Source: Phycisphaerae bacterium (GTDB lineage: Bacteria > Planctomycetota > Phycisphaerae > UBA1845 > UTPLA1). From it: a stretch of 14,830 nucleotides of DNA. Positions within the stretch are counted from its first letter, which is position 1, and the number at the start of each line of letters is the position of its first letter. The position numbers and the translations under genes were made by a program. The stretch spans positions 1 through 14,830 of the forward strand of contig JAFGQA010000161.1 in NCBI GenBank assembly GCA_016935885.1. Direction: 5' to 3'. The notes under the pieces were generated by a model. It was not told where the DNA came from. It saw only the letters and a program-made list of their open reading frames with translations, and did not search any database. Shown in pieces: positions 38 through 14,830 of the stretch.

Positions 38-92
38 GGCTTGCCGTTTGGCGGATCAACCGCTTAAGTTGTTTCTGCGCGGCTCCTTAGCC
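38..92. repeat. Dispersed intergenic repeat, copy A
   Basis: This stretch shares an identical 18-base block (GGCTTGCCGTTTGGCGGA) with positions 10638-10655. After a gap it shares a second block around GTTGTTTCTGCG (59-91 here, 10675-10707 there; 27 of 33 bases match by eye). The second copy carries about 18 extra bases between the two blocks. Copy A overlaps the last bases and the stop codon of the FemAB-like gene, so the element abuts or slightly enters that reading frame. The rest of positions 1-86 holds no gene that I can support; a GC-rich partial palindrome (GGCCGGCCTGCCGGC) lies just before the repeat. No function is known to me. Confidence 0.7.
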
Positions 93-1136
93 TGGTATCG
101 ACTTCGCCAGCCACGCCCCCAGTGGGCGTGTGATCGGCAGCGGCAATGTCTTCCAGACGCGGCGCGCCGCCGCCCAGCGCGGCGAGCCCGCCGACAGATC
201 CGGCGCCGCACGCCCCGGCATCACGTGCGTCTGGAATTCCAAAGGCCGTGGCTCAAACCCGCAAAACCGCTTGAAGTTGTAGCTTCCTGTGTTACCAATC
301 CGCGTGCGTCCAAAGTCGTACTGGGCAAAGCCGTGCTCCGCTCCCCATCGCATCGACTCGGCGTACAGGAAATTGTTCAACCCATAGATCGACTCCCGCT
401 CGTCTATACCCGCAAAGTACGGCATCACCGTGTCGCGGTGCAGAAACGTCAGCAACCCCGCCACCGGCCGCCCCTGGCATCGCACCAGGTGAACCACGTT
501 CGCCGTCCCCGTTGCGGCGACCAGCTCCTCGAAAAAACGATACGGGTAGTTCGGCGACCCCAGCCGGCGCATGGACCTCGAATACAGCCGCCACACGATC
601 GGCAACAGCCCCCGATCGAACGCGACGCTCAACTCATACCGCTCGGCCGCGCGTCGTGCCGCGGCCCGCGCCTTACGCGGCATCCCCGCCAAGACATCCT
701 CGCCCCGAGGTGGCAGCGGCTTGCGGAACGTCGCGTGGCTTCTGCTCACCGTCAGACCCGGAACCGATGCCCTGATCGATCGCAACTCGATCGATCGAAC
801 TCCACCCTGTCTGGCGATCACCGTGGCGTTGTCGAACAGGGCGGAGGCGACCTCTTCATCGTCTGCCAGGATGCCACCGTACGTCGCATACGGCACGCTG
901 ACGAGCAAGCGCCCCGCCAATACACTGTGGACCTCGAACAGGGGAAAGACACCAACGACATGCTTTCCGCGACGGGCCACGATGTATCGAGGACGATGGC
1001 CGAATGCACGCTCAACGGCGCGTTTCCATGCCAATCCGTGGAACAGCGTCCCTTCGGGATGGCTCTCGGCGTAGGCTTGCCAGTGGGCCGATTGGCTCGC
1101 CTCGAATAGTTGGATTCGAACGAGTCCCTCCGACAT
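87..1136 (-). CDS. FemAB/GNAT-type acyltransferase, exopolysaccharide (PEP-CTERM/XrtA) locus type
   Basis: This 349-residue protein resembles the FemAB-related acyltransferases that accompany exosortase A/PEP-CTERM exopolysaccharide loci. Family hallmarks are visible in the N-terminal half: FHGLAWKRAVERAFGH, then a GVFPLFEV strand, then SVPYATYGG. In the C-terminal half are the YSRSMRRLGSPNYP segment, the strand pair VAGLLTFLH / VMPYFAGI, and YNFKRFCGFEP near the end, typical of the second GNAT-like fold. Such proteins are thought to transfer an acyl or aminoacyl group in the cytoplasm; the substrate here is unknown. It is the last gene of a four-gene minus-strand cluster, 51 bases after the kinase gene. 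The frame can be opened at GTG 1142, but I prefer ATG at 1136, which has AGGAAAA upstream. The stop TAA lies inside a dispersed repeat. Family assignment is confident; the biochemical role is inferred. Confidence 0.85.
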   Translation of the reverse strand: MSEGLVRIQLFEASQSAHWQAYAESHPEGTLFHGLAWKRAVERAFGHRPRYIVARRGKHVVGVFPLFEVHSVLAGRLLVSVPYATYGGILADDEEVASALFDNATVIARQGGVRSIELRSIRASVPGLTVSRSHATFRKPLPPRGEDVLAGMPRKARAAARRAAERYELSVAFDRGLLPIVWRLYSRSMRRLGSPNYPYRFFEELVAATGTANVVHLVRCQGRPVAGLLTFLHRDTVMPYFAGIDERESIYGLNNFLYAESMRWGAEHGFAQYDFGRTRIGNTGSYNFKRFCGFEPRPLEFQTHVMPGRAAPDLSAGSPRWAAARRVWKTLPLPITRPLGAWLAKSIPG

Positions 1137-1187
1137 CAACACGTTTTCCTGATCGTCCCGCTGGCCACAAAGTCTTGGGATGAACTC

Positions 1188-2186
1188 CTACCCATCCTTG
1201 TCGGGCTCGCGGTACACCGACCGGGCAGCATTCAAGCTGCAGCACGCCGCGATGCAGCCCATCACGTTCAGGTTGTTCGACTGTAGCCAGTTCACCGATT
1301 GTCGCACTAGGTTGGCGGGCGTTTGGTTCATGCGCACAACCATCACGATCCCGGTGCACAACGCACCGATCACCCCGGTGTCCGACAGCCGCTGCACAGG
1401 AGGTGTATCGACCAGCACGAAGTGGTACCTCTCGCGGATTTCCTCAAATACACGGCCCGCCGCCGTCGAGTTGATCAGTTCGGCGGGATTGAGGCCATGC
1501 GAGGCCCCCGCCGGCAGGACGAACAGGTTACCCAGGGGCGTCTTGGCGATGCACTCGTCCAGTGTTGCCCGCCCGGCCACCGCGTCTGCCAGCCCCGGCG
1601 TGTTCGGTAGCCTGAGCAACCTCGAAAGGCTACCCTTCCGGAAATCCGCGTCCACCGCCAGCACATTCAGATGACGCACCTCGGCCATGACCGCCGCGAG
1701 ATTCGCCACGGTGACGCTCTTGCCCTCCCGTGCCACGCTGCTCGTGACGGCGATACAACTGTGCTCGGCGGTGTTGCTTCGGCTTAATAGCCACGTCCGT
1801 ACCGCGCGGTATTGCTCGGTGATCGATGAATTCCGATCGCGTATGGCTACGACCGTCTGATCAACGTCCCAGGGGGGCAGTGGCCCCATGGGCGATGCCG
1901 CGTGCGGCGACGGAGGTCCACGGAAGCCGATCCGGGCCTTGGAAGACGACCACCCACGAGGTAGCGGATCGGTCCGCCTGTCTGTCTCGATGCCCTTCCC
2001 GGACGTGACGCGATCCCGCGTGCCGTCACGCCGTGTGCCTTCCTGGACGGCTTGATGGCGATCGACTACGGCGGAGGCGACGGAGGCGTCTCGCTCCCGC
2101 AGCGTGGAGGCCTCACCGAGGCCGAGCCGCAGCTTCTCCGACCGTTCTTGCTGCGCCTTCTTCAGGGCTTTTGCGATTCGACCCAT
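1188..2186 (-). CDS. CpsD/Wzc-type tyrosine autokinase of exopolysaccharide locus
   Basis: This 332-residue P-loop protein belongs to the bacterial tyrosine (BY) kinases, which autophosphorylate and control polysaccharide chain length with a Wzz-type membrane partner. It opens with MGRIAKALKKAQQER, the usual N-terminus of the PEP-CTERM-locus kinases, followed by a ~90-residue low-complexity linker. An EX2RX2R oligomerisation motif sits at residues 124-130 (EQYRAVR). The modified Walker A is AREGKS (152-157), Walker A' is VDADFRKG (188-195) and Walker B is FVLVDTPP (256-263). The usual C-terminal tyrosine cluster is reduced to one tyrosine, Y325. A TTG at 2234 would add 16 residues overlapping the previous gene; ATG 2186 fits the family N-terminus better, though its ribosome site is weak. 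It lies 28 bases after the chain-length gene, its expected activator. Confidence 0.9.
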   Translation of the reverse strand: MGRIAKALKKAQQERSEKLRLGLGEASTLRERDASVASAVVDRHQAVQEGTRRDGTRDRVTSGKGIETDRRTDPLPRGWSSSKARIGFRGPPSPHAASPMGPLPPWDVDQTVVAIRDRNSSITEQYRAVRTWLLSRSNTAEHSCIAVTSSVAREGKSVTVANLAAVMAEVRHLNVLAVDADFRKGSLSRLLRLPNTPGLADAVAGRATLDECIAKTPLGNLFVLPAGASHGLNPAELINSTAAGRVFEEIRERYHFVLVDTPPVQRLSDTGVIGALCTGIVMVVRMNQTPANLVRQSVNWLQSNNLNVMGCIAACCSLNAARSVYREPDKDG

Positions 2187-2214
2187 GTTATTCCGCCCGT
2201 CTCGACGTTTCGAG

Positions 2215-3927
2215 TCAACCCTGTCCCAAGACAAACTGACACGCCCGCATCGGAGCAGACTTCAACAGCTCATATTCGCCCGGATTCTCGATGCTGAGGT
2301 ATGCCATCAAACCCGCAATTGCCATGGCGCCGATGCAGATCGATGCGGCCCCGGGCACGAGGATGAGACTCCGAGCCAGTCGTCTTCTGCGCCCGGCCTC
2401 TGTCATGATCTCGTCGATGCTCTCTATCACCGAAATGCCGAGTGAGCTCTTCAGTTGCTTGATCGTGCGGAAGGAGCGGTCCATCAACTCGGTGAGCAAC
2501 ACCCACAGAGCGCCGACCGCTCCGCCGATGGCAAGACAGATCAGCGTTACGACGCCCGCATCAGGCGAGCTCGGCCTGGCGATCGGTTGCACGTCCTTGA
2601 CAGTCGCGAAATGAAGCGTCCGATCACGATCCTCGACGAGGAAGATGTGCTGAATCGGGCTGAGGTTCTGCTGCCAGGAGATCAACTCGTCGGCAGTGCG
2701 CTGTGCTTGTTCCTTCAGCCTCGAGTAATCCTGCCGGTGATCGATGGCCAGCGCGCGTCCTCGCTCGACCTTTGAGATTTGTTCGTCAAGCGTAGCCAAC
2801 CGTGCTGTGTGCGCGTCTATTTTCGCATCCACGTCCGCCAGTTCCTGCGTTAGCCGCTGTGTCGCCAACATCTCCGTCTGCCCGGAATCATCCTCGGCCG
2901 ATCGTGAGAGGGAAGTCTCCTGCCTAGGCGTGCGGGCAAGCTCCTCCCGCCGTGCCTCCATCCTGATGCGCAGTTGCTGTATGACCGGATGCTGCTCCGT
3001 CATTCCCTGTAACGCCTTGCGATCCGCTATATCCCTCAGCAGCTTGTTCACCTCTTGCACTAATTCCATGTATCGTTCATTCGGCCTGGCGACCACCAGC
3101 GCATCGTCCGTGGCTTCGTTGTCCTGTGCGGCATCCGCTCCCCTTGCGAGCCTTCCCACGAGCCGTACACGCTGCGACTTCAATTCAGCCAGCTTCCGCT
3201 CCAGGCTCAAACGTTCAACCGTCAACGTCGTCCGTTCGGTTCCGCCGGCATCAGGATGGCTCGGATCAATCCCGGGGTATTTCAACTCGTACTCGACCAG
3301 CTCCCGTTGCAGCTCCCTCAGTTCGCCGCGGCACCGCTCTGATTCCGTTTCGAAAAACTGCTTTACATCTTGCAGTAGCTCGATGGTTCTCTTCTTTGCG
3401 CTGGTGATATACTTGTCTCGAATCAGACCCAGGATTTCCGGCATGTACTCCGGCTTGAACATCCTCAGCGTGATACACACCACGTCGCCGGTACCCGACG
3501 ATTCCAGCGACTCCGTTGACAGCCCCTTCGAGACTGCCTTCACTCGTGCGTCTTTCACGGCGAGGCTTTCCGGCGTCAGTTCACCGTCCTCGAATCGCTC
3601 CAAGCCATCCAGCAAGCCCAATTCGTCGAGGATTCCCTCAATCACCTCCTCGTCCCGAAGATCGGCAAGCATGCGCTCGCGGATCTCAGCGTAGGGATGT
3701 GTCCATTTCAAGCCCATCATGTTCGCGAAGACGGGGTCCTGCTCACGCTTGATGACGGTCCGCGTCGTGTACTTTCGCGGCACCCAAAGCGAGCACAACA
3801 GTGCAAGGGTCGTTGCAATGCAGAATGGAAAGATAAAACACCAGCGTCGGAAACAGACAACTCGCCACGCCTCCTGCAGCGCGTGCCGAACGTCCGTCAC
3901 CGAGAATTCGTCGAGATGATGCTGCAT
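2215..3927 (-). CDS. Wzz/GumC-type polysaccharide chain-length determinant (polysaccharide co-polymerase)
   Basis: This 570-residue inner-membrane protein has the layout of a polysaccharide co-polymerase, the partner of a BY-kinase in setting polymer length. A first membrane helix spans about residues 28-49, followed by the Wzz-like KYTTRTVIKREQDP segment. A long periplasmic region with coiled-coil stretches (about 165-260 and 285-430) follows. A proline motif (IARPSSPDAG, 449-458) precedes a second membrane helix at about 457-479. Then comes a cytoplasmic-type stretch (DRSFRTIKQLKSSLGISVIESI) of the sort seen between Wzz and kinase modules. Unusually, a third hydrophobic segment follows at about 518-545, after an RRRR patch, leaving a ~25-residue tail. 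The kinase is a separate gene. The start ATG 3927 has only a weak ribosome site (AGGTA, 8 bases away). The family is clear; the third helix is my reading of hydrophobicity. Confidence 0.88.
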   Translation of the reverse strand: MQHHLDEFSVTDVRHALQEAWRVVCFRRWCFIFPFCIATTLALLCSLWVPRKYTTRTVIKREQDPVFANMMGLKWTHPYAEIRERMLADLRDEEVIEGILDELGLLDGLERFEDGELTPESLAVKDARVKAVSKGLSTESLESSGTGDVVCITLRMFKPEYMPEILGLIRDKYITSAKKRTIELLQDVKQFFETESERCRGELRELQRELVEYELKYPGIDPSHPDAGGTERTTLTVERLSLERKLAELKSQRVRLVGRLARGADAAQDNEATDDALVVARPNERYMELVQEVNKLLRDIADRKALQGMTEQHPVIQQLRIRMEARREELARTPRQETSLSRSAEDDSGQTEMLATQRLTQELADVDAKIDAHTARLATLDEQISKVERGRALAIDHRQDYSRLKEQAQRTADELISWQQNLSPIQHIFLVEDRDRTLHFATVKDVQPIARPSSPDAGVVTLICLAIGGAVGALWVLLTELMDRSFRTIKQLKSSLGISVIESIDEIMTEAGRRRRLARSLILVPGAASICIGAMAIAGLMAYLSIENPGEYELLKSAPMRACQFVLGQG

Positions 3928-3998: not shown

Positions 3999-4841
3999 CT
4001 ACTTCCTGCCCGCAAAGTAATTCGCCGTTGATTCCACCGACGTCCCTGCCTCCTGGGGTCCCTCGATTTCCTCCGCTGCGGACGTGAACGGCCACATAAT
4101 CTCACGCAGTCGCAGCGCCACCCAGGCCAACGGCGAGGGCGGCACGTAGATAATGTCGCCTTCCTCCAGCAGGACGTTCTGATCAAGCTTCCCTTCTGTC
4201 ATAATCCTGTCTGCGTCGATCGTGAGTACGCGACGCTCGCCCTCTTCGTGACTCGGATGGATGACCTTAATCTGACTCTTCCAGGCGACGAAGGTCGGCT
4301 GGGCCGTTGCCAGGACGCCCAACAGTGTGTCACGACCCGTGTATGGAAACGCGCCGGACTGACTCACGTGACCGAATACGTAAAACCGCTTGCTGCCTCG
4401 CCCCGCTGCCCGCACGCTTACGTGCGGATCCAGATAGTACTTGCGCAGCAGCGCCTCGAGCTTCCGTCCAATCTCGACCGGGGTCATCCCGGTAACCTTG
4501 ACCTCTCCGACCAAGTTGAGCGAGATCTTGCCGTCCTGTCGGATCACCTGCGACTGACCGTCCAACTCCGGCGCCGTCGGTGAGCTGATCACAAGCTCGT
4601 CCGGCGGCTGCATGCGATAGTCCGGCGACGAGACCGACGCCTCCCACGCGTGGATAAACGAGTTGATCTCCTGGTCACTCGGCGTGCAGCCTGTTGCGGC
4701 CATTCCAACGACCGCGCCCACGGCGCACAATGCTCGAGTACCCAACACGCCGGACCACATGGACCGCCGGACCACAAACTCAGAAGACCGGAGGGTCCGC
4801 ATCCACTTCGTATCCAACGCCGACTTCTCCTTGCCTGTCAT
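3999..4841 (-). CDS. Wza-type polysaccharide export lipoprotein (Poly_export/SLBB)
   Basis: This periplasmic/outer-membrane protein belongs to the Wza-like exporters that form the outer-membrane exit channel for exopolysaccharide. From ATG 4841 it has 280 residues. A hydrophobic stretch (ALCAVGAVVGMAATGC) ends in a lipobox-like MAATGC, making Cys52 the likely lipidated residue. The polysaccharide-export domain starts at about residue 75 (YRMQPPDELVISSP) and includes DGKISLNLVGEVKVTGMT. A soluble ligand-binding-type beta-grasp follows (FYVFGHVSQSGAFPYTGRDT). Near the end, DIIYVPP leads into a helix-like PLAWVALRLREIMWPF, which matches the position of the membrane-crossing helix of Wza. Other starts are ATG at 4898, 4802 and 4760; 4841 has the best spacing from GGAG (9 bases), but a start closer to the lipobox is possible. 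It is the first gene of the minus-strand cluster. Confidence 0.88.
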   Translation of the reverse strand: MTGKEKSALDTKWMRTLRSSEFVVRRSMWSGVLGTRALCAVGAVVGMAATGCTPSDQEINSFIHAWEASVSSPDYRMQPPDELVISSPTAPELDGQSQVIRQDGKISLNLVGEVKVTGMTPVEIGRKLEALLRKYYLDPHVSVRAAGRGSKRFYVFGHVSQSGAFPYTGRDTLLGVLATAQPTFVAWKSQIKVIHPSHEEGERRVLTIDADRIMTEGKLDQNVLLEEGDIIYVPPSPLAWVALRLREIMWPFTSAAEEIEGPQEAGTSVESTANYFAGRK

Positions 4842-5278
4842 GCCGGTAATCTCCAACCGCTCCGCCAGGAGACCCCAGGCCGCAGCGGGGCGGGCCATTC
4901 AGATGGCCCCACCGCGCCGTTTATCGGGTGGTTCGGCAGGCAACTGAACATACGCTATGAAACGATCAATCGGTTGATGCTGCTGATCGTGCCGATCGTG
5001 CCGACTTAGACCCCATCACAAGACTGCGCGACCAGCACCATGGCCTGTAGCGGTCTCGCCGGGACGACGAGTGCATCAGGTTGAGCGTACAGAGGTGCCG
5101 TGGGTCACACGCCGGCTGCCAGCCGTGGAAGCCCCGCTTTTTTCGGAGCGAGACCGTGGAGCACGCGGCCTCGTCGATATCGGACGCCCTTCGCGTCAAG
5201 ACACCGTCCTGACACTTCCGATAACGGAGAGACGGGCGAGACCGAAACCCGTGCACCCGGTGGTAGCCCGTGCGCCCT

Positions 5279-5354: not shown

Positions 5355-5359
5355 AGGAG
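5355..5359 (+). promoter_or_regulatory. Ribosome binding site that sets the ATPase start
   Basis: AGGAG lies six bases before ATG 5366, a near-ideal Shine-Dalgarno arrangement. The open frame extends upstream to a GTG at 5270, but the added 32 residues are Arg-rich and unlike the family. The protein read from 5366 begins MYCEFFGLTALPFNNTPDP, the normal N-terminus of these ATPases. Confidence 0.85.
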
Positions 5360-5365
5360 CAAGGC

Positions 5366-8300
5366 ATGTACTGCGAATTCTTCGGACTAACGGCCCTACC
5401 GTTCAATAACACGCCCGATCCGCGCTTCTTCTTCGAGACGCCAGACCACGAAGAAGCCCTCGCCTCTCTGTTCTACGCCGCCGAGGAACGAAAAGGATTC
5501 GTCCTTGTCACTGGCGAGGTGGGGTCGGGGAAGACCCTCTTGAGTCGGCTTCTGCTCAACAGGCTTGGCAGCGCCGCGCGCACCGCCGTCATCAGCAACA
5601 CCCGCCTATCCGGACAGGCGTTGTTGATGGCCATCTGTCGGGAGTTCGACATCGACGTCCAGGATGGCGAGACCACGTCAGACCTGTCACACCTGCTGGA
5701 GCAGTACCTCCTTGACCAGTACAGTCGCGATCGGCTCGCCGTCGTCATCCTCGACGAAGCGCAAAACCTGCCGATGCAGACCTTCGAGGAGCTCAGGATG
5801 CTCGGCAACCTCGAGGCCGACGACGCCAAGCTCTTGCAGGTCCTGATGCTTGGCCAACCCGAGCTTCAGGACGCCTTCCGGACCCCCTCCATGCGCCAAC
5901 TACACCAGCGCATCTTTCGCACCTTCCACCTCCGAGCACTGACGAAGGACCTCACTGCCGGTTACGTCCAACACCGCCTCCAAGTCGCCGGCCTGCCCGA
6001 TGACGAGGAGATCTTCGACGCCGACGCCCTCGACGCCGTCTACCATCACTCCGAGGGCATCCCCAGGCTGATTAACCAGATCTGCGACAACGCCATGCTC
6101 GCCGCCTACACCGAGTCCACTCGGCAGGTCTCCGCCAAGCTCGTCAACGAAGTCGTCGAGCAGATGATGGCCTTGACCGTAACGACGCAGAATCCCCCGC
6201 CGCGCCGTGCCGTTGCCCGTCAACTGCTTAACGCCCCCGAACATACAGGATTCCAATCCTCCCCCAATGCCGCGTCGACGGTATCGCCTGATTCCGACAC
6301 CGCCGCGTACGAGACCTCTCCAGACCAGCCTCAGCACGCTGGCCCCCTCATGCACCGGATGATGCAGCGCCTTGAGGCCATGGAAGGTGTCCTCACCGAA
6401 ATCCAGGGCGGCCGGCGGTCCTCCGGAGATTCAGCCCGGGAGGCCGCCTTCCAATCGCAAGCCGTCCACGAGATGCGGCAACACGTCTCTGACTTGCTCA
6501 GACAAGCCGCCGCCAATACCCGTGAGGCAGAAGAACGCATCCGCAACATGTACGAGGAAGCCCATCGTTCCTCCGACCGGCTCACGAAGCAGACCGCAGA
6601 TATCCTGAATGAGGCCAAGTCCGACACTCAGAAGACCAACGAACACATGCGCGAGTTGCTCGCAGAAGCGCAGCGATCCTCCGAACGCATGAGGAAAGAG
6701 GCCAACGACGAGCTCCGCGAAGCCCGGGAACAGAACGTCAAGCTCCAGGAGCAATTCAAACAGCTCATTGAAGAGGCGCACGCCCATGCCGAAACGCGGC
6801 AGCACCAAGCCTCCCAGTCCGCCACCCAGGAGCAAGCGGAACTGGAGGCGACCCGACAGATGCGCCGACAGGCCGCGGAGATGCTCGAGCAGGTCACGGC
6901 AACCAGCAAGGAAGCCAAGCAACAGATGCACGACCTGCTCAACAGGGCCAACGCCACTACCCAACGCCTCGAAGGTACTGCCAAGGAGACGCTGGGTGAG
7001 GCGGAGAAGCAGAACGCCGTCCTTCAGGCCCAGGCGAAGCACCTCCTCAAGGAAGTGCACGCGTACGCCAACGGCCAGCAGGAACGCATCTCCGAGCTTC
7101 TCTCACAGGAGCGGGCGGAGTTCGACGCCGCCCAGCAGATGCGTCGTCAGGCCGCCGAGATGCTCAAGCAGGTCGAAGCCACCACACAGAACGCCAACGA
7201 GCGTCTCGTCAGAATCCTCGATGAAGCCGGCAGCGCATCCGACCACGTCGAAAGGCAGGCGGCCGAGACCCTGGGAGAAACCGAAAGGCAAAACGCCGCA
7301 CTCCGCGACCAAGTGGACAAACTTCTTGACGAGGTTCGCGCCCAGGCCGAATCACACGGTGCACGCGTTGCCGAGACCATCGAGCAAGAGCAAGCCCAAT
7401 TCCAGGCCGCGCGCGACCAGGTCGGCGAGTTGACGGACCGGATGAAGAAACGTGCAGAGGAGACGGACCGCCAATGCGGCGAGATGCTTGGCTATGTCAA
7501 GACGCAGACCGAGAAGATGGGCGCGCGGCTCGACGGCCTCAGTGACCTCGCCAGGACCCGTGCCGACGAACTGAACACCTCCATGGATGCATTCATGCGG
7601 CAGATGCGGCAGCGCGTTGAGGAATCGAACGAACGACTTCTAGAGACCGCATCCACCACGCAGGCCGAAGTGCAGGCCACGCGCCAGGCCCTCGACATTG
7701 CCAAAGAACAGACCCTCGCCGAGGCCCAGGCCGCCCGCTCCAAGGCCGATCACATCCTCGAGCAGACAAACGACCTGCTGCTCAAGACCCGCGAGAAGAC
7801 CACCTCGTTGCTCACCGGCCTGGAAACCCAGATCACCGAGCAGACGGACAAGGCCGCGAAGGCATGGCAAACCGCCATTGCGGAGGGATCGCAGACCCTC
7901 ACCGACCTGCGCGCCAAACTCGACGAGACCCGACTCTTGACAGACCGCTCCCGCGCCGAACTCGAGTCCCTCGTACACAAGGCCGCCAAGGAACTGGCCG
8001 CCTCGCGCGAGGCGTTCGAGGGCGGAATCACCGCCCACAGGACCGCGATCGCCGCTCTCTCCACCAGCGCCGACAACGTCAGACAAGACACCGCAAGACG
8101 CTTCGACGAAGCACGCAAGGAGCTCGACGCTACCACCGAGAAACACCGCCAGGCCCTCCGCCAACGAGTCATCAAGTTCGTCGGCAACACTGACGGACAC
8201 GTGTCCTCTGCTGAGGCCAGGGTCGCCAAAACCATCGAGTCACTGGAGAACGAGTTGAAGGTCGCCTCCGAGACCGCCGACCGCATCTACACAGAACTCC

Positions 8301-10432
8301 AACAGTCGGTCGGCACGCTTCAGGAGAGGGCCGAGGATTACCAGGATCAGTACCATGCCGAGGCTGGGCGCATCCAGGAGGAGCTGACCCAGCTTGCCGA
8401 TCGCAATCGTGCCCTGCTCGAGGAGGCGCAGGCGCGCGTGGATGGCATGTCCGGGCAAGCAGAGCAAGCCGCACGGCAGCTCTCAGACAGAATCGATGAG
8501 CTTCGGCAGTCGGCGAAGATCGGCGTCACGAACGTAAGTCAGGAACTCGCGGCTTGTCTCAAGGACGCGCTGGAGAAGACTGAGAGGATCCGCAACGATT
8601 CCAATGCTGTTTCCTCGGTCCTCGAGAAGCGCATGAGCCAAACTCAAACGCAGGCCGAGACCGCCATTGGCAGTGCTGAGAAGGCAGTAGCCGCCATTCG
8701 CGAGCAAAGCAAATCGTCGCTGGCCGAGGTCCGAGCGGGCCTCACGCAAATGAACAAGCGGTCTGAACTCCTGCGGCGAGACCTTGTCGGGCTCGGCGAC
8801 GAAGTCAGCGAGGCGGCGGCGAACTCAATGCAGGAACTCGAGCGGACGGCGGCCGGCGCGATCGAGCGAATCCAGACCCTGCAGGAGGCCGCGCGGCAGG
8901 ACGCAGAAGGCAGCCACGAGCGGCTGGTGGAACTCCACCGGCGGGTCGAACAAGGAGCCGAGCAGATCCGGCAGAACGCCACAAAGCTCCTTGACCAGGT
9001 CCAGGAGGGTGCAACCTCGCTACGGCAGCACACGCACGAGCTGCTCGCCCAAGCCCAAAGTGGCTCAGACAAGATCGGCGAACAGGCCGCCAACCTCCTC
9101 ATGCAGGCCCATTCCTCCGCGGAGAGCTTCCGCGACCAGGCCGAGACACTCCTTCGACGCGCGGAGGCCAGCGCCGACGCCATCCGCACAGACGTCCAAG
9201 CCTTCCGCTCCGAGGTCCTCAAGGAATCCGAACAGGTCCGAGACGGAATCACGATCGCCAAGCAGGACATAGCCAAGGCTCAGGAGGAATCCGCACAGGC
9301 CATCAACCAAGCGAAGGAGACACAAAAGGAGATCCGGCAGGAGGCCCGAACGGAAGCGGAAGACCTGTACAAACGCGCCGATCACGTCGCCTCTCAGGCC
9401 CGCGAGCAAGCCACCCAGGCCGTCGATTACGCAAGGGCGATCCAGGAAGAGACCCAGAAGGAAGCGGCGAACATCCTTAACCGTGTCAACGAGCTCTCCG
9501 AGCGTGCCAGCGAAATCCTCAACATGCCCCAGGCATTGGTTGAGGAAGCCAACCGTCGCGCTACAGCACTGTCGGACCTGTCCAAACAGGTCTCCTCCAC
9601 CGTCAGGCAGCTCGCCGCGGCAAACACCGATGCCCAACAGAACAGGGCGGAACTGGACCAGGTCAACGAATCCGCCGACGAGAAGCTCGGGCTCCTCAAG
9701 CATCACACGGCAAGAGTGGGCCAGCTCGTTGGCATCATCCGCCAACTCTACGGCACGATGGACGCCAGGATTGAGCGCCTCCGAAGCCGCCTCAGCCAAG
9801 CCGACGACCTTTTTCAGAGCGTGCCCGCGGAAATTGACCATCTGCGTAAGGCTCTTGCCGACGAGGCGGACGATGTGCTCGCCGCAGCACGCAAGCCCTT
9901 GACAAGGCCAGCCCCTGTCAAGGGCGAGCAGGCGACAGCAAAAGAAGCACTCCTGGCAAACCAGCCACAGCGGCAGGGCCAGGCCTCGCCGGCAACGCAC
10001 ACACAGAAGCGAGCGCCCGCCCCGCGACCGGCGGCTCCCGCCCCCCGGCAGGCAGCGCCCGCTCCAGCAGCAGGGCCACCGGCTCCAGTACACGCGTCCA
10101 TCCGCGACGCCAAGGCACCAAACCAGCGAGCCACGAGTGACAACCCATCTCCAAGCCCCGGTGCTGGCGTCCCGCCGGTTCCACATCGTGGGACAGACGC
10201 CGGCGCCACAACGAGCCGCGGGGCAGGCTCCAAGGCCGCAGCCACGGTTCCGATCGGCCAAGGTTCGCTCGGTGAGCTTGTCCAACGCAATCAGAAGCTC
10301 AACGAATGGCTGCGTGACGTCCTGGGCGAGGAGCACATCAGGACCGCGGAATCGAGCCGCGCCACATCCGCTCGAAAACCGCAAGACCACTCAAAAGGCG
10401 GCTCCCCCTCTGAAACGGTGTTCAAGAAGTGA
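5366..10432 (+). CDS. ExeA-like AAA+ ATPase (PEP-CTERM locus type) fused to a giant coiled-coil rod
   Basis: This protein has 1688 residues; family members I know are usually only a few hundred. Residues 1-270 are a complete ATPase: MYCEFFGLTALPFNNTPDP, Walker A GEVGSGKT (50-57), Walker B VVILDEAQ (126-133), a sensor-1-like MLGQPEL (161-167), arginine candidates in QRIFRTF (181-187), and a sensor-2-like GIPRLINQICDNAML (231-245). A ~100-residue linker follows. Residues 370-1510 are almost uninterrupted Ala/Glu/Gln/Arg-rich helix with an 18-residue period and two adjacent 93-residue repeats (499-591, 592-684). Residues ~1512-1629 are Pro/Ala-rich, and 1630-1660 contain a probable helix (SLGELVQRNQKLNEWL). 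No signal peptide or membrane helix is visible, so it is probably cytoplasmic. Related ATPases sit in exopolysaccharide loci, where a role in secretion is presumed. Here I infer a motor with a long scaffold or tether. The frame is continuous with no sign of a frameshift join. Confidence 0.9.
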   Translation: MYCEFFGLTALPFNNTPDPRFFFETPDHEEALASLFYAAEERKGFVLVTGEVGSGKTLLSRLLLNRLGSAARTAVISNTRLSGQALLMAICREFDIDVQDGETTSDLSHLLEQYLLDQYSRDRLAVVILDEAQNLPMQTFEELRMLGNLEADDAKLLQVLMLGQPELQDAFRTPSMRQLHQRIFRTFHLRALTKDLTAGYVQHRLQVAGLPDDEEIFDADALDAVYHHSEGIPRLINQICDNAMLAAYTESTRQVSAKLVNEVVEQMMALTVTTQNPPPRRAVARQLLNAPEHTGFQSSPNAASTVSPDSDTAAYETSPDQPQHAGPLMHRMMQRLEAMEGVLTEIQGGRRSSGDSAREAAFQSQAVHEMRQHVSDLLRQAAANTREAEERIRNMYEEAHRSSDRLTKQTADILNEAKSDTQKTNEHMRELLAEAQRSSERMRKEANDELREAREQNVKLQEQFKQLIEEAHAHAETRQHQASQSATQEQAELEATRQMRRQAAEMLEQVTATSKEAKQQMHDLLNRANATTQRLEGTAKETLGEAEKQNAVLQAQAKHLLKEVHAYANGQQERISELLSQERAEFDAAQQMRRQAAEMLKQVEATTQNANERLVRILDEAGSASDHVERQAAETLGETERQNAALRDQVDKLLDEVRAQAESHGARVAETIEQEQAQFQAARDQVGELTDRMKKRAEETDRQCGEMLGYVKTQTEKMGARLDGLSDLARTRADELNTSMDAFMRQMRQRVEESNERLLETASTTQAEVQATRQALDIAKEQTLAEAQAARSKADHILEQTNDLLLKTREKTTSLLTGLETQITEQTDKAAKAWQTAIAEGSQTLTDLRAKLDETRLLTDRSRAELESLVHKAAKELAASREAFEGGITAHRTAIAALSTSADNVRQDTARRFDEARKELDATTEKHRQALRQRVIKFVGNTDGHVSSAEARVAKTIESLENELKVASETADRIYTELQQSVGTLQERAEDYQDQYHAEAGRIQEELTQLADRNRALLEEAQARVDGMSGQAEQAARQLSDRIDELRQSAKIGVTNVSQELAACLKDALEKTERIRNDSNAVSSVLEKRMSQTQTQAETAIGSAEKAVAAIREQSKSSLAEVRAGLTQMNKRSELLRRDLVGLGDEVSEAAANSMQELERTAAGAIERIQTLQEAARQDAEGSHERLVELHRRVEQGAEQIRQNATKLLDQVQEGATSLRQHTHELLAQAQSGSDKIGEQAANLLMQAHSSAESFRDQAETLLRRAEASADAIRTDVQAFRSEVLKESEQVRDGITIAKQDIAKAQEESAQAINQAKETQKEIRQEARTEAEDLYKRADHVASQAREQATQAVDYARAIQEETQKEAANILNRVNELSERASEILNMPQALVEEANRRATALSDLSKQVSSTVRQLAAANTDAQQNRAELDQVNESADEKLGLLKHHTARVGQLVGIIRQLYGTMDARIERLRSRLSQADDLFQSVPAEIDHLRKALADEADDVLAAARKPLTRPAPVKGEQATAKEALLANQPQRQGQASPATHTQKRAPAPRPAAPAPRQAAPAPAAGPPAPVHASIRDAKAPNQRATSDNPSPSPGAGVPPVPHRGTDAGATTSRGAGSKAAATVPIGQGSLGELVQRNQKLNEWLRDVLGEEHIRTAESSRATSARKPQDHSKGGSPSETVFKK
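6473..9277 (+). repeat. In-gene 18-residue (54-base) helical repeat region
   Basis: The rod domain can be cut into consecutive 18-residue units. From 6473 the units run MRQHVSDLLRQAAANTRE, then AEERIRNMYEEAHRSSDR, then LTKQTADILNEAKSDTQK, then TNEHMRELLAEAQRSSER, all in register. Six more register units run from 8954 to 9277, for example GAEQIRQNATKLLDQVQE and GATSLRQHTHELLAQAQS. Between these ends the pattern is weaker but the composition is the same. Eighteen residues equal five helical turns at 3.6 residues per turn, a period known from straight or slightly right-handed coiled coils rather than the heptad left-handed type. The repeats are diverged in DNA, so this is protein-level repetition and not a simple DNA repeat. 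Confidence 0.85.
6860..7417 (+). repeat. Two tandem 279-base (93-residue) units in the ATPase rod
   Basis: Units at 6860-7138 and 7139-7417 both begin MRRQAAEML(E/K)QV and contain AAETLGETERQN or its close variant AKETLGEAEKQN at the same offset. Both end in an ERAEFDAAQQ / EQAQFQAARD type segment. Each unit is 93 residues, which is five 18-residue repeats plus three residues. The preceding 129 residues (6473-6859) equal seven repeats plus three and end with the related AELEATRQ, so they look like an extended older copy. Confidence 0.85.
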
Positions 10433-10796: not shown

Positions 10797-13700
10797 CTAC
10801 GGCGTCGCCGCCTCCGCCACCTCACGCAACAGCCCCGGCGGGGCCTCCATCGTTGCCTTGCAGCTTGGGTAGGCCGAGCAGCCCAAAAACCGGCCCGTTC
10901 GCCCCATCCGCAGCAGCATCTTCGAACCGCACTCGGGGCACGAGACATCCGTCTCGATCGGCTTCGCCCTCTCCGGAGCGGGCATCTCCTCCGCCCCCCG
11001 CTTCTTGGCCTCACCCCTCAGGTTTGCCGTCGCCTTGCAGTGGACGCAACTGAAGAACGGACCGAACCGGCCGGTCCGGATCGTCATCTCCCCGCCGCAG
11101 TCAAAACAGGTCAACGGACCCTCCGGCCACGTTTCTACCACCGGGCGCCCCGTCCGTGTCCAAGCGAACCCGGGCGGCGGCGGCCCCAACGCCGCGATCT
11201 CCTCCGCTGTCAGGCGTTCCGCCTTGCCACGGGGCCTGCCGTTACCGTTGCTAAGCCCGTTGCCGTTTCTCGGGCCGCGGCCGTTCGGTGTCTCCGGCGG
11301 CACATCCGGAATCTCGCCCGCTGCCTCCAGTTTCTTCAGGTGCTCGAGCTTGTCCATCGGCATCGCATTGCGGCACTTCGGGAATCCCGAGCAGCTCAGG
11401 AACGGCCCACGACGACTGGCGCGAATCACCATCGGTCGGCCGCACTTGTCGCAACGCGCACCCGCCATCTTGGGCTTTGGCTTCTCCACGTAGACGCCCT
11501 CTGGCAAAGGACACGTGGCCTTGCACTTCGGGTACTTGCTGCATCCCAGAAACGACCGGCCTCGCGAGAACTTCACTTGCATCGGAGCGCCGCACTCGTG
11601 GCACGCCTGCGTGATCTCTTCAGGCTTGACCTTCTTCAGCGGCACGCCACCCTCCGTGCAGGGCTTCGTGCCGGTGCATTCCGGATAACCCGAGCAGCCC
11701 AAGAACGGCCCAAGCCGGCTGCGACGCAGGACCATCCGCTTGCCACACACGTCGCAGGGCTCCGTGATCTCGATAGGCTCGATGATCTTCCCGTCTTGGT
11801 CCACGTTCCTGGCGACCTGGCATTCCGGATACCCCGTACACGACAGGAAGCGACCGTTCCTCCCAAACCGATATACCATCGGCCTGCCACACGTCTCGCA
11901 GGTGTAGTCGCTGGGCTCCGCCCGGACCCCTTCCATCTCCTGGTGAGCCCTTGCCAGCGCCACCTTAAACGGGTCATAGAACTCGTGGAGGACCTCGTGC
12001 CAATCCAGATGCCGCTCCGCGATCTTGTCCAGTTCGTCCTCTATATGGTTGGTAAACCGAACGTCCATGACCCTGGGAAAGTGCGCCACCAGCTTCTGGG
12101 TCACGATCTGGCCCCGCGCCGTCGGGTGGAAACGCCGCTCCGCCTGCTCCACGTAGCCCCGGTCCTGGATGGTCTTGATAATCGCCGCGTACGTGCTCGG
12201 TCGCCCAATCCCCTCGGCCTCCATCGCCTTGACCAACGACGCCTCGGTGTACCGCGGGGGCGGCGAAGTAAACCGCTGTTTCGGCTCGATGGCCACGGGC
12301 GCGACGCGCTGCCCCACTTCCAACGCTGGCAACATCGGCTTGTCGCCGTTCGCCGGCACGCCCAAGACCTTGTAGAATCCGTCGAACACCAGCACTCGAC
12401 CCATCGCCTTGAACACGACCTCGCCAGTTGAAAACGAGGAACCGCGGGTTTCAGCCCGCGCGGCCCCTCCAGGGGCAGACGGGTCAGCTTGTTGATCCGT
12501 GGCACAGGCGTCGCACTTGTGTTGGATCTCGGCCGAAATCAAGACCGTCGTCGCATCCCACTCTGCCGGCGACATCTGGCACGCCACAAAGCGGTTCCAA
12601 ACCAGCGTGTACAGCTTGTGCTGGTCCGGTGTCATGTGCCCCTTTATCGCCGTCGGCGTCCGCCTCACGTCCGTCGGCCGGATTGCCTCGTGCGCTTCCT
12701 GGGCCTTCTTCGCACTCCCATACCGATTGGGCTTCGGGGGCAGGTAACGATCGCCGCAAGTCTCCCGGATCAGGTCGCGCACCGCATCGATCGATTCCGC
12801 CGACAAGTTTGTCGAATCCGTCCGCATGTACGTGATCAGGCCGACGTTGCCTTCGCCGGTCTGGATGTCGATCCCCTCGTAGAGCGACTGGGCGATCTTC
12901 ATCGTCTTCGACGTCCCGAACCGGAGCTGATTCGCTGCCGCCTGCTGCAAGGTGGCCGTCGTAAACGGCGCCGAGGGCCTGCTGATCGACCGCTTCGTGT
13001 CGATCGACTTGATCCGGAATTCTGGCGCCTGCGAGACCGACGTCTCGCCCACCAGTTCGATCTGCTTCAGCCCGAGATGTGCATACTGCTCCCAATCGCG
13101 GCTGACGACCTTCGTGACGCGGAAGCCCATCGACTCGACTACCGGCCGCACGGCATCAACGGCGCTGAAGAAGCTGGCCACGGCCCCGGCATCCTGACCC
13201 TCCGGCGCTCCAGGCGTGTCGGTGCCCTGATTCCCCGATATTCTCCTCGCGCTCTGAGGTCCCGACGTGCCCGACTGGCCTTCAGGCTTGAAGGGCCGCC
13301 CCGATACTTGAACCAACGACGCCTCGATACAGCCCGACTTCTCCACCCACGCCGCACGGTCCTTCGCTGATTGCTGATGGCTGATTGTCGACAGCGCCTT
13401 CGCAAGCTCGGCGGCCTGCTCGGCCGACGGCGTGAACACGCCTTCTACCGCCCAGCTCTCCTGCGGCTCAAACGCCCGGATCTCATCCTCTCTCCCAACG
13501 ATCATCCGGACCGCGACCGACTGCACGCGGCCTGCCGACAGACCCTTGGCCACCTTCTTCCACAGTAGCGGCGAAAGCTCGTACCCCACCACCCGATCGA
13601 GAATGCGGCGGGCTTGCTGCGCGTCCACCTTGGCCGTGTCAATCTCACGCGGGTGCGCGAACGCCTCCGCGACCGCGGACCTTGTAATCTCGTTGAACAC

Positions 13701-14111
13701 CACCCGCCTGATCTTCTCCGGCGGCAGTGAAAGTGCGTATGTCAGATGCCACGCAATCGCCTCGCCCTCGCGGTCAAGGTCGGTCGCCAGGTATATGAGC
13801 GGGGCCTTCGCGGCGGCCTTCTTCAGTTCCTCGACGACCTTCTCGCGGCCCGACAGGATCTCGTAGGTCGGCTCGAAGTTGCGGCCGGGATCGATGCCAT
13901 ACCGCCTCGGCGGCAGGTCGCGCACGTGCCCCTTGCACGCCTTCACGACGTAGCCACGCCCCAGGTACTTGTTGATCGTCTTGGCCTTCGCCGGCGACTC
14001 AACGATCACGAGCGCCTTGGCCCCGTCGCCGCCCGATCCGGCCGAACCGCTCGTGTCCGACCGTGACGCTGCCTTCCTCGTCTGTGAAGCCCCCTTGGTC
14101 ATAGCTCCCAT
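10797..14111 (-). CDS. topA: DNA topoisomerase I (type IA) with six C-terminal zinc fingers
   Basis: This 1104-residue enzyme relaxes negatively supercoiled DNA by a transient 5'-phosphotyrosine link. The Toprim domain carries LVIVESPAKA (E38) and ATDLDREGEAIAWHL (D111, D113, E115), the metal-binding acidic residues. The active-site tyrosine is Y428 in GLITYMRTDST, and EAEGIGRPSTYAAII (631-645) is the conserved Topo I core. Six C4 zinc modules fill the C-terminus, at about 738-764, 786-812, 837-863, 887-913, 1002-1025 and 1058-1084, with an Asn/Gly-rich linker at 945-963. Y428 lies about 110 residues later than the equivalent E. coli tyrosine because of an N-terminal extension and insertions at about 225-260 and 275-312. 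A third insertion lies at 529-563. ATG 14111 has AGGA four bases away; ATG 14102 is an alternative start. The catalytic residues are intact, so I expect an active housekeeping enzyme. Confidence 0.97.
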   Translation of the reverse strand: MGAMTKGASQTRKAASRSDTSGSAGSGGDGAKALVIVESPAKAKTINKYLGRGYVVKACKGHVRDLPPRRYGIDPGRNFEPTYEILSGREKVVEELKKAAAKAPLIYLATDLDREGEAIAWHLTYALSLPPEKIRRVVFNEITRSAVAEAFAHPREIDTAKVDAQQARRILDRVVGYELSPLLWKKVAKGLSAGRVQSVAVRMIVGREDEIRAFEPQESWAVEGVFTPSAEQAAELAKALSTISHQQSAKDRAAWVEKSGCIEASLVQVSGRPFKPEGQSGTSGPQSARRISGNQGTDTPGAPEGQDAGAVASFFSAVDAVRPVVESMGFRVTKVVSRDWEQYAHLGLKQIELVGETSVSQAPEFRIKSIDTKRSISRPSAPFTTATLQQAAANQLRFGTSKTMKIAQSLYEGIDIQTGEGNVGLITYMRTDSTNLSAESIDAVRDLIRETCGDRYLPPKPNRYGSAKKAQEAHEAIRPTDVRRTPTAIKGHMTPDQHKLYTLVWNRFVACQMSPAEWDATTVLISAEIQHKCDACATDQQADPSAPGGAARAETRGSSFSTGEVVFKAMGRVLVFDGFYKVLGVPANGDKPMLPALEVGQRVAPVAIEPKQRFTSPPPRYTEASLVKAMEAEGIGRPSTYAAIIKTIQDRGYVEQAERRFHPTARGQIVTQKLVAHFPRVMDVRFTNHIEDELDKIAERHLDWHEVLHEFYDPFKVALARAHQEMEGVRAEPSDYTCETCGRPMVYRFGRNGRFLSCTGYPECQVARNVDQDGKIIEPIEITEPCDVCGKRMVLRRSRLGPFLGCSGYPECTGTKPCTEGGVPLKKVKPEEITQACHECGAPMQVKFSRGRSFLGCSKYPKCKATCPLPEGVYVEKPKPKMAGARCDKCGRPMVIRASRRGPFLSCSGFPKCRNAMPMDKLEHLKKLEAAGEIPDVPPETPNGRGPRNGNGLSNGNGRPRGKAERLTAEEIAALGPPPPGFAWTRTGRPVVETWPEGPLTCFDCGGEMTIRTGRFGPFFSCVHCKATANLRGEAKKRGAEEMPAPERAKPIETDVSCPECGSKMLLRMGRTGRFLGCSAYPSCKATMEAPPGLLREVAEAATP
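10860..11900 (-). other. Six zinc-finger modules of topoisomerase I
   Basis: Five modules keep the family pattern CX2CG(R/K/A/S)xM, then a Cys in FL(S/G)C, then CX5C ending in YPEC, YPKC, FPKC or YPSC. Module five (C1002, C1005, C1022, C1025) differs, with CFDC and CVHC, that is CX2C at both ends, and is shorter. These modules usually bind single-stranded DNA and may contact RNA polymerase. E. coli TopA has three zinc-ribbon motifs plus degenerate ribbons, so six intact sites is a generous set. Confidence 0.9.
12423..12527 (-). repeat. In-frame segment of topA derived from intergenic repeat DNA
   Basis: About 35 codons (residues 529-563) sit where typical topoisomerases I have only a few residues, between TTVLISAE and VVFKAMGRVLVFDG. 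The DNA carries hairpins typical of spacer repeats: CGCGGG/CCCGCG (12443-12460, loop TTTCAG) and CCCCT/AGGGG (12464-12475). Positions 12500-12529 also match spacer positions 14200-14229 at 26 of 30 bases. The match begins with TGGCACAGGCGTC and ends with TGTTGGATC. In the topA copy the CACAGGC/GCCTGTG stem is decayed. The encoded peptide (IQHKCDACATDQQ and so on) has no resemblance to topoisomerase sequence that I know. Confidence 0.75.
13366..13387 (-). repeat. GCTGATT-type low-complexity tract inside topA
   Basis: On the plus strand the segment reads as three imperfect copies of a GCTGATTG/GCTGATGG unit of 7-8 bases. It encodes TISHQQSAK (residues 242-250) in an extra segment before the predicted domain II region. 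Tracts of this type, whose reverse reads ATCAGCAATCAGC, are familiar intergenic filler in some planctomycete genomes. An origin by insertion is therefore plausible but less certain than for the segment at 12423-12527. Confidence 0.5.
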
Positions 14112-14252: not shown

Positions 14253-14349
14253 ATCGCCGAGCGTATATCGGCCTCGGCCTTACAATCCTGAACGACTAAT
14301 CGCTCACGGTCCTGGGAAGCAGGCGGGGGACCCTAGCACCTCGCCGGAC

Positions 14350-14442
14350 CCCTGTCAATCTACAATTCACAATCAACGATCCGAAGTCCGAAATCCGGAC
14401 GCCAAGACCGCAATCCAGGAACCGCGACCCAAAACCACAATG
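14350..14442. repeat. TCCGAA/CAATC-type low-complexity spacer tract
   Basis: Short imperfect units recur here (ACAATTCACAATCAACGATC, then CCGAAGTCCGAAATCCGG, then GCAATCC). Read on the minus strand it gives the pattern RISDFGSLIVNC. I recognise that as the common spurious translation of intergenic filler repeats rather than a real protein. No function is known to me. Confidence 0.55.
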
Positions 14443-14646
14443 TCTTAGCCGGACTTCCTCCTCTACGGGACCGATACAAACCGCGAAAGCATGGCACGGT
14501 GTATTCCGTTTGAAACTTGGGGAGGCGAGGGGTGCTGAGTGGGGAAACCATCCCGACAACCCGCCCGTACCAAGAATGGCGGAGGGCTCCCTGGAGGCCC
14601 AAATGAAACGAACCGTCCTCGCACGTTGAGGCGGTCGAATATCGGA

Positions 14647-14663
14647 ATCCCACCACGTGGGAT
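14647..14663. promoter_or_regulatory. Hairpin upstream of the secreted-protein gene
   Basis: ATCCCAC and GTGGGAT form a perfect 7-base stem around a CAC loop, 71 bases before the next start codon. It could be the terminator of an upstream unit or part of the leader of the secreted-protein gene. No U-run follows, so a simple terminator is unlikely. Confidence 0.35.
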
Positions 14664-14734
14664 CGAGCCAGTGTACAGGTGCACATCGTGAGCCTTGTGC
14701 ATCACTAATCTCATGCATCAGTAAGGAGTCATCA

Positions 14735-14830
14735 ATGCGACTGAAAACTGTCTGGACGCCCACAATCGCCCCCATCCTGGCCGCCGCCACCCTGGTGGCG
14801 ATCTGCTTCTCCACAGTGCTTGCCGAGCCC
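14735..14830 (+). CDS. 5' end of a secreted protein gene (partial, runs off the window)
   Basis: Thirty-two codons are visible from ATG 14735. AAGGAG at 14723-14728 lies six bases upstream, an excellent ribosome site that fixes the start. The peptide begins MRLKTVWTPTIAP with a basic N-terminus, then has a hydrophobic core (ILAAATLVAICFS) and ends TVLAEP, a textbook signal peptide with likely cleavage after VLA. The mature protein begins at the window edge, so its function cannot be judged. Its orientation is away from topA, and it shares the 623-base spacer with it. Confidence 0.8.
   Translation, partial: MRLKTVWTPTIAPILAAATLVAICFSTVLAEP

What the first reader, a model, noticed from the sequence alone, without database searches (positions are those of the whole stretch)
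5366..10432. AAA+ ATPase of the exopolysaccharide-locus type fused to a ~1140-residue rod
The first ~270 residues are a complete ExeA-like ATPase with Walker A, Walker B and sensor motifs. Relatives beside Wza/Wzz/kinase genes are usually stand-alone and several times shorter. Here the same frame continues into a giant helical domain, a Pro/Ala tether and a helical tail, with a strong ribosome site and no frameshift. This would be a motor attached to a rod tens of nanometres long or more, which suggests a scaffold, spacer or cytoskeleton-like role in organising polysaccharide secretion. The sequence shows the fusion; the mechanical role is inference.
Basis: partly seen in the sequence, partly recalled or inferred. 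Interest (0 to 1): 0.8.

Follow-up and report, generated by a model that had tools for sequence, protein, structure and literature searches.

The report
Polysaccharide-export ATPase with straight rod
A bacterial gene beside polysaccharide-export genes makes an ATPase joined to an unusually long, nearly straight helical rod that ends in a conserved docking peptide; it belongs to an apparently unstudied family in planctomycete bacteria and may act as a long tether for the export machinery.

Summary
The fusion is real: one 1688-residue frame, 5366-10432. It is a family, not a join: 164 proteins of fused length carry this ATPase (120 listed); those with an organism name are Planctomycetota, mostly Phycisphaerae. 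(1) The rod (361-1381) is no heptad coiled coil: its hydrophobic period is 3.60 residues (18/5). All 75 proteins with a strong C-terminal R module, window included, peak at 3.56-3.62; 40 of the other 46 peak at 3.48-3.54. This implies a nearly straight rod of about 150 nm. (2) After it come a conserved heptad segment (R), a Pro/Ala linker and a conserved tail helix (T), present in 76 of 121. (3) In 9 of 12 sampled long-form loci the gene diverges from Wza-Wzz-BY-kinase-FemAB genes; 15 of 16 stand-alone relatives near such genes run with them. (4) Two relatives fuse the ATPase to the BY-kinase. Best reading: a cytoplasmic export ATPase held or arrayed by a long straight rod with a docking tail. 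The anatomy is shown or modelled; tethering and T's partner are inferred.

The parts
5355..5359 (+). Shine-Dalgarno-like AGGAG, 6 bases before the ATG
   Evidence: sequence
5366..6175 (+). AAA+ ATPase domain, residues 1-270 (TIGR03015/AAA_22; Orc/TnsC/MuB-type fold in the model of the relative P0053)
6176..6445 (+). Low-order linker, residues 271-360 (10% P, 12% A)
   Evidence: the corresponding stretch of the relative P0053 has pLDDT below 50
6446..9508 (+). Straight rod, residues 361-1381: 18-residue repeats, hydrophobic period 3.60, no proline, about 150 nm if one continuous helix; phase shifts near residues 451-487 and 829-920; a 93-residue internal repeat within about 440-690
9509..9877 (+). 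R module, residues 1382-1504: conserved heptad-period helix ('HTARVGQLVGIIRQLYGTMDARI')
9878..10255 (+). Pro/Ala-rich linker, residues 1505-1630, mostly without predicted structure
10256..10360 (+). T module, residues 1631-1665: conserved amphipathic helix ('GSLGELVQRNQKLNEWLRDVLGEE'), putative docking peptide
10361..10432 (+). Short variable C-terminal end and stop codon
4899..5365 (.). 467-base intergenic region between the divergent Wza-like gene and the ATPase-rod gene
3999..4898 (-). Wza-like outer-membrane polysaccharide export protein (PF02563, SLBB)
2215..3927 (-). Wzz-like chain-length determinant (TIGR03007, below cut-off)
1188..2234 (-). CpsD/Wzc-type tyrosine autokinase (BY-kinase; TIGR01007 above cut-off)
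87..1142 (-). FemAB/GNAT protein, XrtA-associated type (TIGR03019 above cut-off)

Best explanation
The gene encodes a cytoplasmic AAA+ ATPase of a polysaccharide-export system, carried on a built-in tether. SHOWN from sequence or models: an ExeA-like ATPase head; a rod of about 1020 residues in 18-residue repeats whose hydrophobic stripe has nearly the pitch of an undistorted alpha-helix; a conserved heptad segment (R); a linker without predicted structure; a conserved tail helix (T); and a conserved divergent cassette with Wza, Wzz, BY-kinase and FemAB genes. INFERRED: the head acts on or with the BY-kinase/Wzz inner-membrane complex (natural ATPase-kinase fusions exist). Two or more rods pair along a straight, alanine-rich seam clamped by the R segment. 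The flexible tail helix docks on a fixed partner. ATP-dependent assembly of heads at one end and docking at the other would hold export complexes together, or at a chosen cell site, over 100 nm or more. Rod length varies widely and grows by internal duplication while both ends stay conserved, which fits a spacer or tether better than a catalytic domain or a precise ruler.
For: Family, not accident: 164 fused proteins; 12 of 61 matches in 150 class genomes have frames of 800 aa or more. Straight rod: period 3.60, mean local power 11.6 against at most 2.4 in 200 permutations; 75 of 75 rods with R above 100 bits, window included, peak at 3.56-3.62; identity autocorrelation is highest at lags 18 and 36. 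Selective conservation: median identity to the window is ATPase 0.70, rod 0.28, R core 0.61, linker 0.30, T 0.50 (74 proteins). T travels with R: 76 of 76 T carriers among the 121 fused proteins have R. An independent whole-genome check: in 15 genomes all 8 strong T hits lie in frames whose place and length match the ATPase-rod genes. Cytoplasmic: no span after residue 270. Cassette: 9 of 12 long-form loci carry all four partners, divergent. ATPase-BY-kinase fusions L088 and L089. Length growth: internal repeats up to 93% identical; 12 of 75 rods have one at 50% or more. Charge: the rod's net -40 is unfavourable for lying on an anionic membrane.
Against: No partner of T is known and no oligomeric state could be predicted (single-chain folding only). 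AlphaFold confidence over the rod of the relative P0053 is moderate (block means about 59-79, 47-53 at breaks near 497-504 and 636-648). The alternative of a mere oligomerisation domain fits most facts. Three of 12 long loci show none of the cassette in the fetched flanks (L042, L044, L046), though these have no T and at best a weak R. L043 has the cassette but no R or T and a 3.5 period, so the cassette does not require a straight rod. Four long forms (L042, L044, L046, P0082) fall outside the main long clade of the tree, so long tails arose more than once or moved. Comparing ATPase residues of T-bearing and T-less proteins gave no clear docking patch.
Confidence: 0.5

Rival explanations
1. 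Oligomerisation device only: the rod gathers ATPase heads into rings or bundles to raise local ATPase activity, as ExeA is multimerised through other domains. Length and the tail have no positional role.
For: A coiled-coil rod with a conserved heptad end (R) is a typical oligomeriser. The literature says ExeA and ExeB multimerise on peptidoglycan into large complexes needed for secretin assembly (PMC4098917, passages). Rod length is very variable (about 417-1495 residues in 76 proteins).
Against: A rod of 400-1500 residues is far longer than oligomerisation needs. It does not explain the conserved T helix after a disordered linker.
Confidence: 0.27
2. Self-assembling filament: T docks on the AAA+ heads of other molecules, giving head-to-tail polymers or a meshwork, a small cytoskeleton.
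For: The head's nearest folds include TnsC and MuB, of which filament structures are listed. [quoted passage not shown] T has no other carrier at E < 0.1 in the 15 genomes searched.
Against: No docking signal: T is predicted helical without the head (block means 76, 91 and 70) as with it (81 and 68 in a relative), and no co-varying patch on the head was found. Relatives of the ATPase without T occur in similar loci.
Confidence: 0.15
3. DNA- or nucleoid-linked rod, SMC-like: the ORC/TnsC-like head binds DNA and the rod bridges the chromosome to the envelope.
For: The nearest folds, Orc1/Cdc6, TnsC and MuB, bind DNA. Weak SMC profile matches, far below cut-off.
Against: The head is acidic (net -17 over 270 residues). 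SMC matches (22.9 bits against a cut-off of 567) look like coiled-coil noise. The ATPase sits in export loci and in kinase fusions.
Confidence: 0.05
4. Surface-lying amphipathic helix: the rod coats the inner membrane, as apolipoprotein-like Pfam matches might suggest.
For: Apolipoprotein profile match below gathering score (35.4 against 90). A straight stripe with period 3.6 would suit a flat surface.
Against: Net -40, and a stripe of about 120 degrees, alanine-rich with few large hydrophobics, which is like a helix-packing seam. Liposome binding was not testable.
Confidence: 0.05

Closest known systems
XrtA/PEP-CTERM-associated ATPase (TIGR03015), stand-alone
   Same: Head domain over its full length (264.2 bits); Wza/Wzz/BY-kinase neighbourhood
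   Different: Score below the curated cut-off of 324.5. Stand-alone forms in the class sample are about 270-330 aa and, where such genes are near, mostly co-directional (15 of 16); here there is a 1400-residue extension and divergent orientation, and no exosortase lies in the relatives' cassette loci
ExeA/GspA (type II secretion)
   Same: N-terminal cytoplasmic AAA+ domain; works with an envelope export machine
   Different: ExeA has a single transmembrane segment and a periplasmic peptidoglycan-binding domain (PMC4098917, passages); neither is found here
FilP/Scy coiled-coil proteins of Streptomyces
   Same: Long non-heptad rod with alanine in its core; Scy exceeds 1000 rod residues (PMC9858780, passages)
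   Different: Scy is described as almost entirely hendecads (11/3) with a DivIVA-like N-terminus; here 18/5 with an AAA+ head. No sequence relation was shown
TnsC/MuB with TnsB-type C-terminal hook
   Different: Hook and AAA+ head are on different proteins there; here on one chain. No transposition gene among the 7 window frames scanned and no sequence similarity shown
SMC/Rad50 proteins
   Same: ATPase plus long coiled coil
   Different: SMC has an ABC ATPase split over both ends (recalled); here a single N-terminal AAA+ head; profile matches far below cut-off

Membership tests
XrtA-associated ATPase equivalog TIGR03015 | Score above the curated cut-off (324.5 bits) | tested here: not met
   264.2 bits; family resemblance clear, equivalog claim not made
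XrtA-associated ATPase equivalog TIGR03015 | Polysaccharide export neighbourhood | tested here: met
XrtA-associated ATPase equivalog TIGR03015 | Exosortase in the same locus | tested here: inconclusive
   No exosortase match inside the fetched loci of the 9 cassette genomes, though all 9 have one elsewhere; for the window itself none of 7 frames matches one, but it is only 14.8 kb and ends inside the operon
ExeA/GspA | Cytoplasmic AAA+ domain at the N-terminus | tested here: met
ExeA/GspA | Single transmembrane segment | tested here: not met
   maximum 19-residue hydropathy 0.55 after residue 270
ExeA/GspA | Peptidoglycan-binding domain | tested here: not met
   no such Pfam match at E <= 0.01
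SMC/Rad50 | ABC-type ATPase halves at both termini | tested here: not met
   AAA+ at the N-terminus only; C-terminus is helix, linker and helix
FilP/Scy (DivIVA-like) | DivIVA-like N-terminal motif | tested here: not met
   no DivIVA match in Pfam or NCBIfam at E <= 0.01; the N-terminus is the ATPase
FilP/Scy (DivIVA-like) | Forms filaments in vitro | not testable with these tools
   needs purified protein
TnsC/MuB regulators | Head fold of the ORC/TnsC/MuB type | tested here: met
TnsC/MuB regulators | ATP-dependent filament on DNA | not testable with these tools
   acidic head makes DNA binding doubtful
TnsC/MuB regulators | Transposition genes beside it | tested here: not met
   named neighbours are export genes and topA

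The most novel reading that the evidence does not exclude
An AAA+ switch that builds its own long-range scaffold: straight octadecad rods about 150 nm long whose C-terminal hook (T) docks on AAA+ heads of neighbouring molecules. This would give an ATP-controlled cytoplasmic meshwork that clusters BY-kinase/Wzz polysaccharide-export complexes in Phycisphaerae, a polysaccharide-dedicated bacterial cytoskeleton.
Probability: 0.15. Interest if true: 0.85.

Novelty: new variant of a known kind. Interest (0 to 1): 0.6.

Why it matters
How bacteria place and cluster polysaccharide-export machines is largely open, and planctomycete cell biology has few known structural proteins (general knowledge). 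This is a large, coherent, apparently undescribed family with a clear three-part design, ATPase head, straight 18/5 rod and conserved tail, next to a conserved export cassette. The R and T modules and the natural ATPase-kinase fusions turn a vague 'scaffold' idea into specific binding tests. The 18/5 rods, found in all 75 R-bearing proteins measured and contrasted with mostly heptad rods in the other fused proteins, would also be a good natural set for studying nearly unsupercoiled coiled coils.

Tried and rejected
Assembly join or frameshift: rejected, single frame with even GC3 and many relatives of the same build. SMC or apolipoprotein identity: below cut-offs, probably coiled-coil noise. 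Sequence match to solved structures: none at E <= 0.01. Viral origin: no confirmed relative in viral contigs by the pattern scan. Plasmid relatives: 80 records, all below 60% identity; the 5 rows listed are outside Planctomycetota. Docking patch on the head from T-bearing against T-less proteins: 7 clade-specific positions, uninformative. T docked on the head in the model: coordinates are not given, so not readable; T is predicted helical with or without the head. Rod length as a ruler matched to Wzz: not pursued, since Wzz frames are nearly constant (570-596 aa in 9 loci) while the ATPase-rod frames vary (1038-1543 aa). R carriers without ATPase: 2 of 29 (P0122, P0123), both labelled partial by their sources. 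Literature: nine searches (listings only) show no title or abstract on this fused family, and the founding PEP-CTERM paper has no occurrence of ATPase, AAA or ExeA in its held text (PMC1569441, term search). That covers only the open-licence library.

Results and limits against my reading: L043 has the cassette with a heptad rod and no R/T; L042, L044 and L046 are long without the cassette; 6 of 46 fused proteins without a strong R also peak at 3.60-3.64. The R and T models were seeded by motif patterns that I chose from these same proteins (the T seed pattern, met by 32, demands the W and part of the motif), so part of their conservation is by construction; the rest were found by the profile. 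The wheel is aligned on its own hydrophobic phase, so only the width and make-up of the stripe inform. Genome searches scored at most 15, 9 or 12 candidates per genome, so counts are lower bounds. The orientation-length association (Fisher p about 2e-6) ignores shared ancestry: long and short forms are mostly separate clades, so it may reflect one or two events.

Full report
OBSERVATION. The frame 5366-10432 is open over 1688 codons with an AGGAG six bases before the ATG. Residues 1-267 match TIGR03015, the XrtA/PEP-CTERM-associated ATPase, with 264.2 bits (cut-off 324.5), and AAA_22 over its cut-off. Walker A, DEAQ and the later motifs are at residues 50, 130, 163, 181 and 232 (motif roles recalled). 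The neighbours on the minus strand are FemAB (TIGR03019 above cut-off), BY-kinase, Wzz-like and Wza-like genes; the gene on the other side is a convergent topA. The genome of the window is not held.

THE FUSION IS A FAMILY. A search with residues 1-270, limited by the tool to proteins of 928-2954 aa, found 164 at E <= 1e-10 (120 listed); the listed names that give an organism are Planctomycetota, mostly Phycisphaerae. A pattern scan of genome contigs confirmed two loci, the nearer in a Phycisphaerales MAG (L001, 73% identity; class Phycisphaerae). In 150 genomes of that class, 42 have TIGR03015 matches at E <= 1e-30, 61 matches in all; 12 of 61, in 11 genomes, have frames of 800 aa or more. 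In 246 genomes of the phylum, 4 listed frames exceed 800 aa. As a contrast, in 185 genomes of the class of G002 (a gammaproteobacterial record) the listed frames run from 224 to 1032 aa; that list is cut off. At most 15, 9 and 12 candidates per genome were scored in these three searches.

THE ROD. Hydropathy periodicity over residues 361-1380 peaks at 3.60 residues, mean local power 11.6; the heptad value 3.5 gives 1.6. 200 permutations reach at most 2.4. The stretch 1361-1480 of the same protein, mostly R, peaks at 3.50, an internal control. Identity autocorrelation is highest at lags 18 and 36, then 93 (an internal repeat), 54 and 72 in this protein; 18, 36 and 54 lead in the mean of 79 rods. 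Of 121 fused proteins, all 75 with R above 100 bits (window included) peak at 3.56-3.62; of the other 46, 40 peak at 3.48-3.54 and 6 at 3.60-3.64. A published account gives 3.63 residues per turn for the straight helix and names 18 residues over 5 turns among coiled-coil periodicities (PMC4786415, passages). By that arithmetic an 18/5 rod has a supercoil pitch of about 65 nm against 14.5 nm for heptads, and residues 361-1381 span about 152 nm if fully helical. The stripe is about 120 degrees wide, alanine-rich at its centre with leucine towards the edges, and the rod carries net -40. Alanine-rich cores in dimeric non-heptad rods are described for FilP and Scy (PMC9858780, passages). The phase is steady within about 10-15 degrees from about 955 to 1240 and shifts near 451-487 and 829-920.

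R AND T. Profiles seeded by motif patterns of my own and widened once find R (about 130 aa) above 25 bits in 81 of 121 fused proteins and T (about 36 aa) in 76 of 121, every T with R. The R-to-T linker is 16-135 residues, on average 16% proline. In the T alignment W and L stand in 76 of 76 and N, K, L, N are nearly invariant; 32 of these met the seed pattern, which demands the W. Median identities to the window over 74 proteins: ATPase 0.70, rod 0.28, R core 0.61, linker 0.30, T 0.50. In 15 whole genomes T's 8 strong hits (E <= 3e-9) lie in frames whose place and length match the ATPase-rod genes; the other 4 hits have E 0.12-0.63 and cover a third of the model. Among frames of 90 aa or more in 60 loci and 40 aa or more in the window, no other holds T at E < 0.5.

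CONTEXT AND EVOLUTION. 60 of the 61 class matches were fetched with flanks of up to about 10 kb. Long forms (750 aa or more): 9 of 12 next to all four cassette genes, all divergent; 3 with none found. Middle forms (360-749): 7 of 11 divergent, 2 co-directional, 2 without. Short forms: 15 of 37 co-directional, 1 divergent, 21 without neighbours found (some on very short contigs; two are contig-cut fragments). Eight of the 9 cassette long forms have R and T. The two co-directional middle forms, L088 and L089, are single frames with TIGR03015 at the N-terminus and a BY-kinase at the C-terminus, a natural fusion suggesting that ATPase and kinase work together. A tree of 77 heads (58 locus rows, the window, 18 relatives that I chose of 120) puts the window in a starred set of 21 long forms (99/92), inside an unstarred set of 27 long forms (91/94), apart from a starred clade of 37 that holds all 35 short forms plus L088 and L089 (100/97); four long forms (L042, L044, L046, P0082) lie outside the 27, and some of the outer branches are long. 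Beyond FemAB a further gene is shared by 9 of 9 cassette loci, and two more by 7 of 9 (some loci end before them). In L038, the one looked up for all three, they match a TIGR03087 glycosyltransferase (272.7 bits, cut-off 316.65) and, weakly, a glycosyltransferase and a polysaccharide deacetylase model. All 9 cassette genomes have an exosortase match, none within the fetched loci. Rods lengthen by internal duplication: 12 of 75 hold a 60-residue stretch repeated at 50% identity or more, up to 93% at lag 98; the window has a 93-residue repeat at 46-53%.

MECHANISM. Steps shown: domain order, periodicity, conservation pattern, gene context, ATPase-kinase fusion. Steps inferred: cytoplasmic location from the absence of spans; rod pairing along the straight seam with R as clamp; head acting at the BY-kinase/Wzz complex; T docking on an anchor. 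ExeA is a cytoplasmic-domain AAA ATPase needed with ExeB to assemble an outer-membrane secretin (PMC4098917, passages), so an assembly role at an envelope export machine has precedent. [quoted passage not shown] These are analogies, not membership.

VERDICT. Real, conserved and apparently undescribed as a family in the papers searched. It is a new variant of a known kind (ExeA-like export ATPase) with an unusual straight rod and a conserved tail. Function as tether or scaffold: about 0.5; self-assembling meshwork: about 0.15.

Noticed in passing
L088:2650-4317 and L089:9695-11338: Natural fusions of a TIGR03015 ATPase with a BY-kinase in one frame, suggesting the two proteins work together.
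   Followed up: partly
10797-14111 (-): TopA of 1104 aa with six Zn-ribbon stretches beside the gene; not found by tblastn in the 21 loci searched (two of them overlap), so this side of the locus seems not conserved.
   Followed up: no
L044:7911-14723: An even longer ATPase-rod form (about 2270 aa) with period 3.54, without R, T or cassette, a second copy in genome G014.
   Followed up: no
genome G235, contig C1: Nine matches with identical score and length (276 aa frames) to TIGR03015 at scattered sites, perhaps the ATPase of a mobile element (guess).
   Followed up: no
1188-2234 (-): The BY-kinase has only one tyrosine near its C-terminus (sequence) instead of the tyrosine cluster usual in such kinases (recalled).
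   Followed up: no
P0003, P0036, P0039 rods: 98-residue internal duplications at 80-93% identity over 60 residues: rods lengthen by recent duplication.
   Followed up: partly
14296-14829 (-): Open frame running off the window with no family match in Pfam or NCBIfam; its end looks repeat-like by eye (sequence), so it may not be a gene.
   Followed up: no
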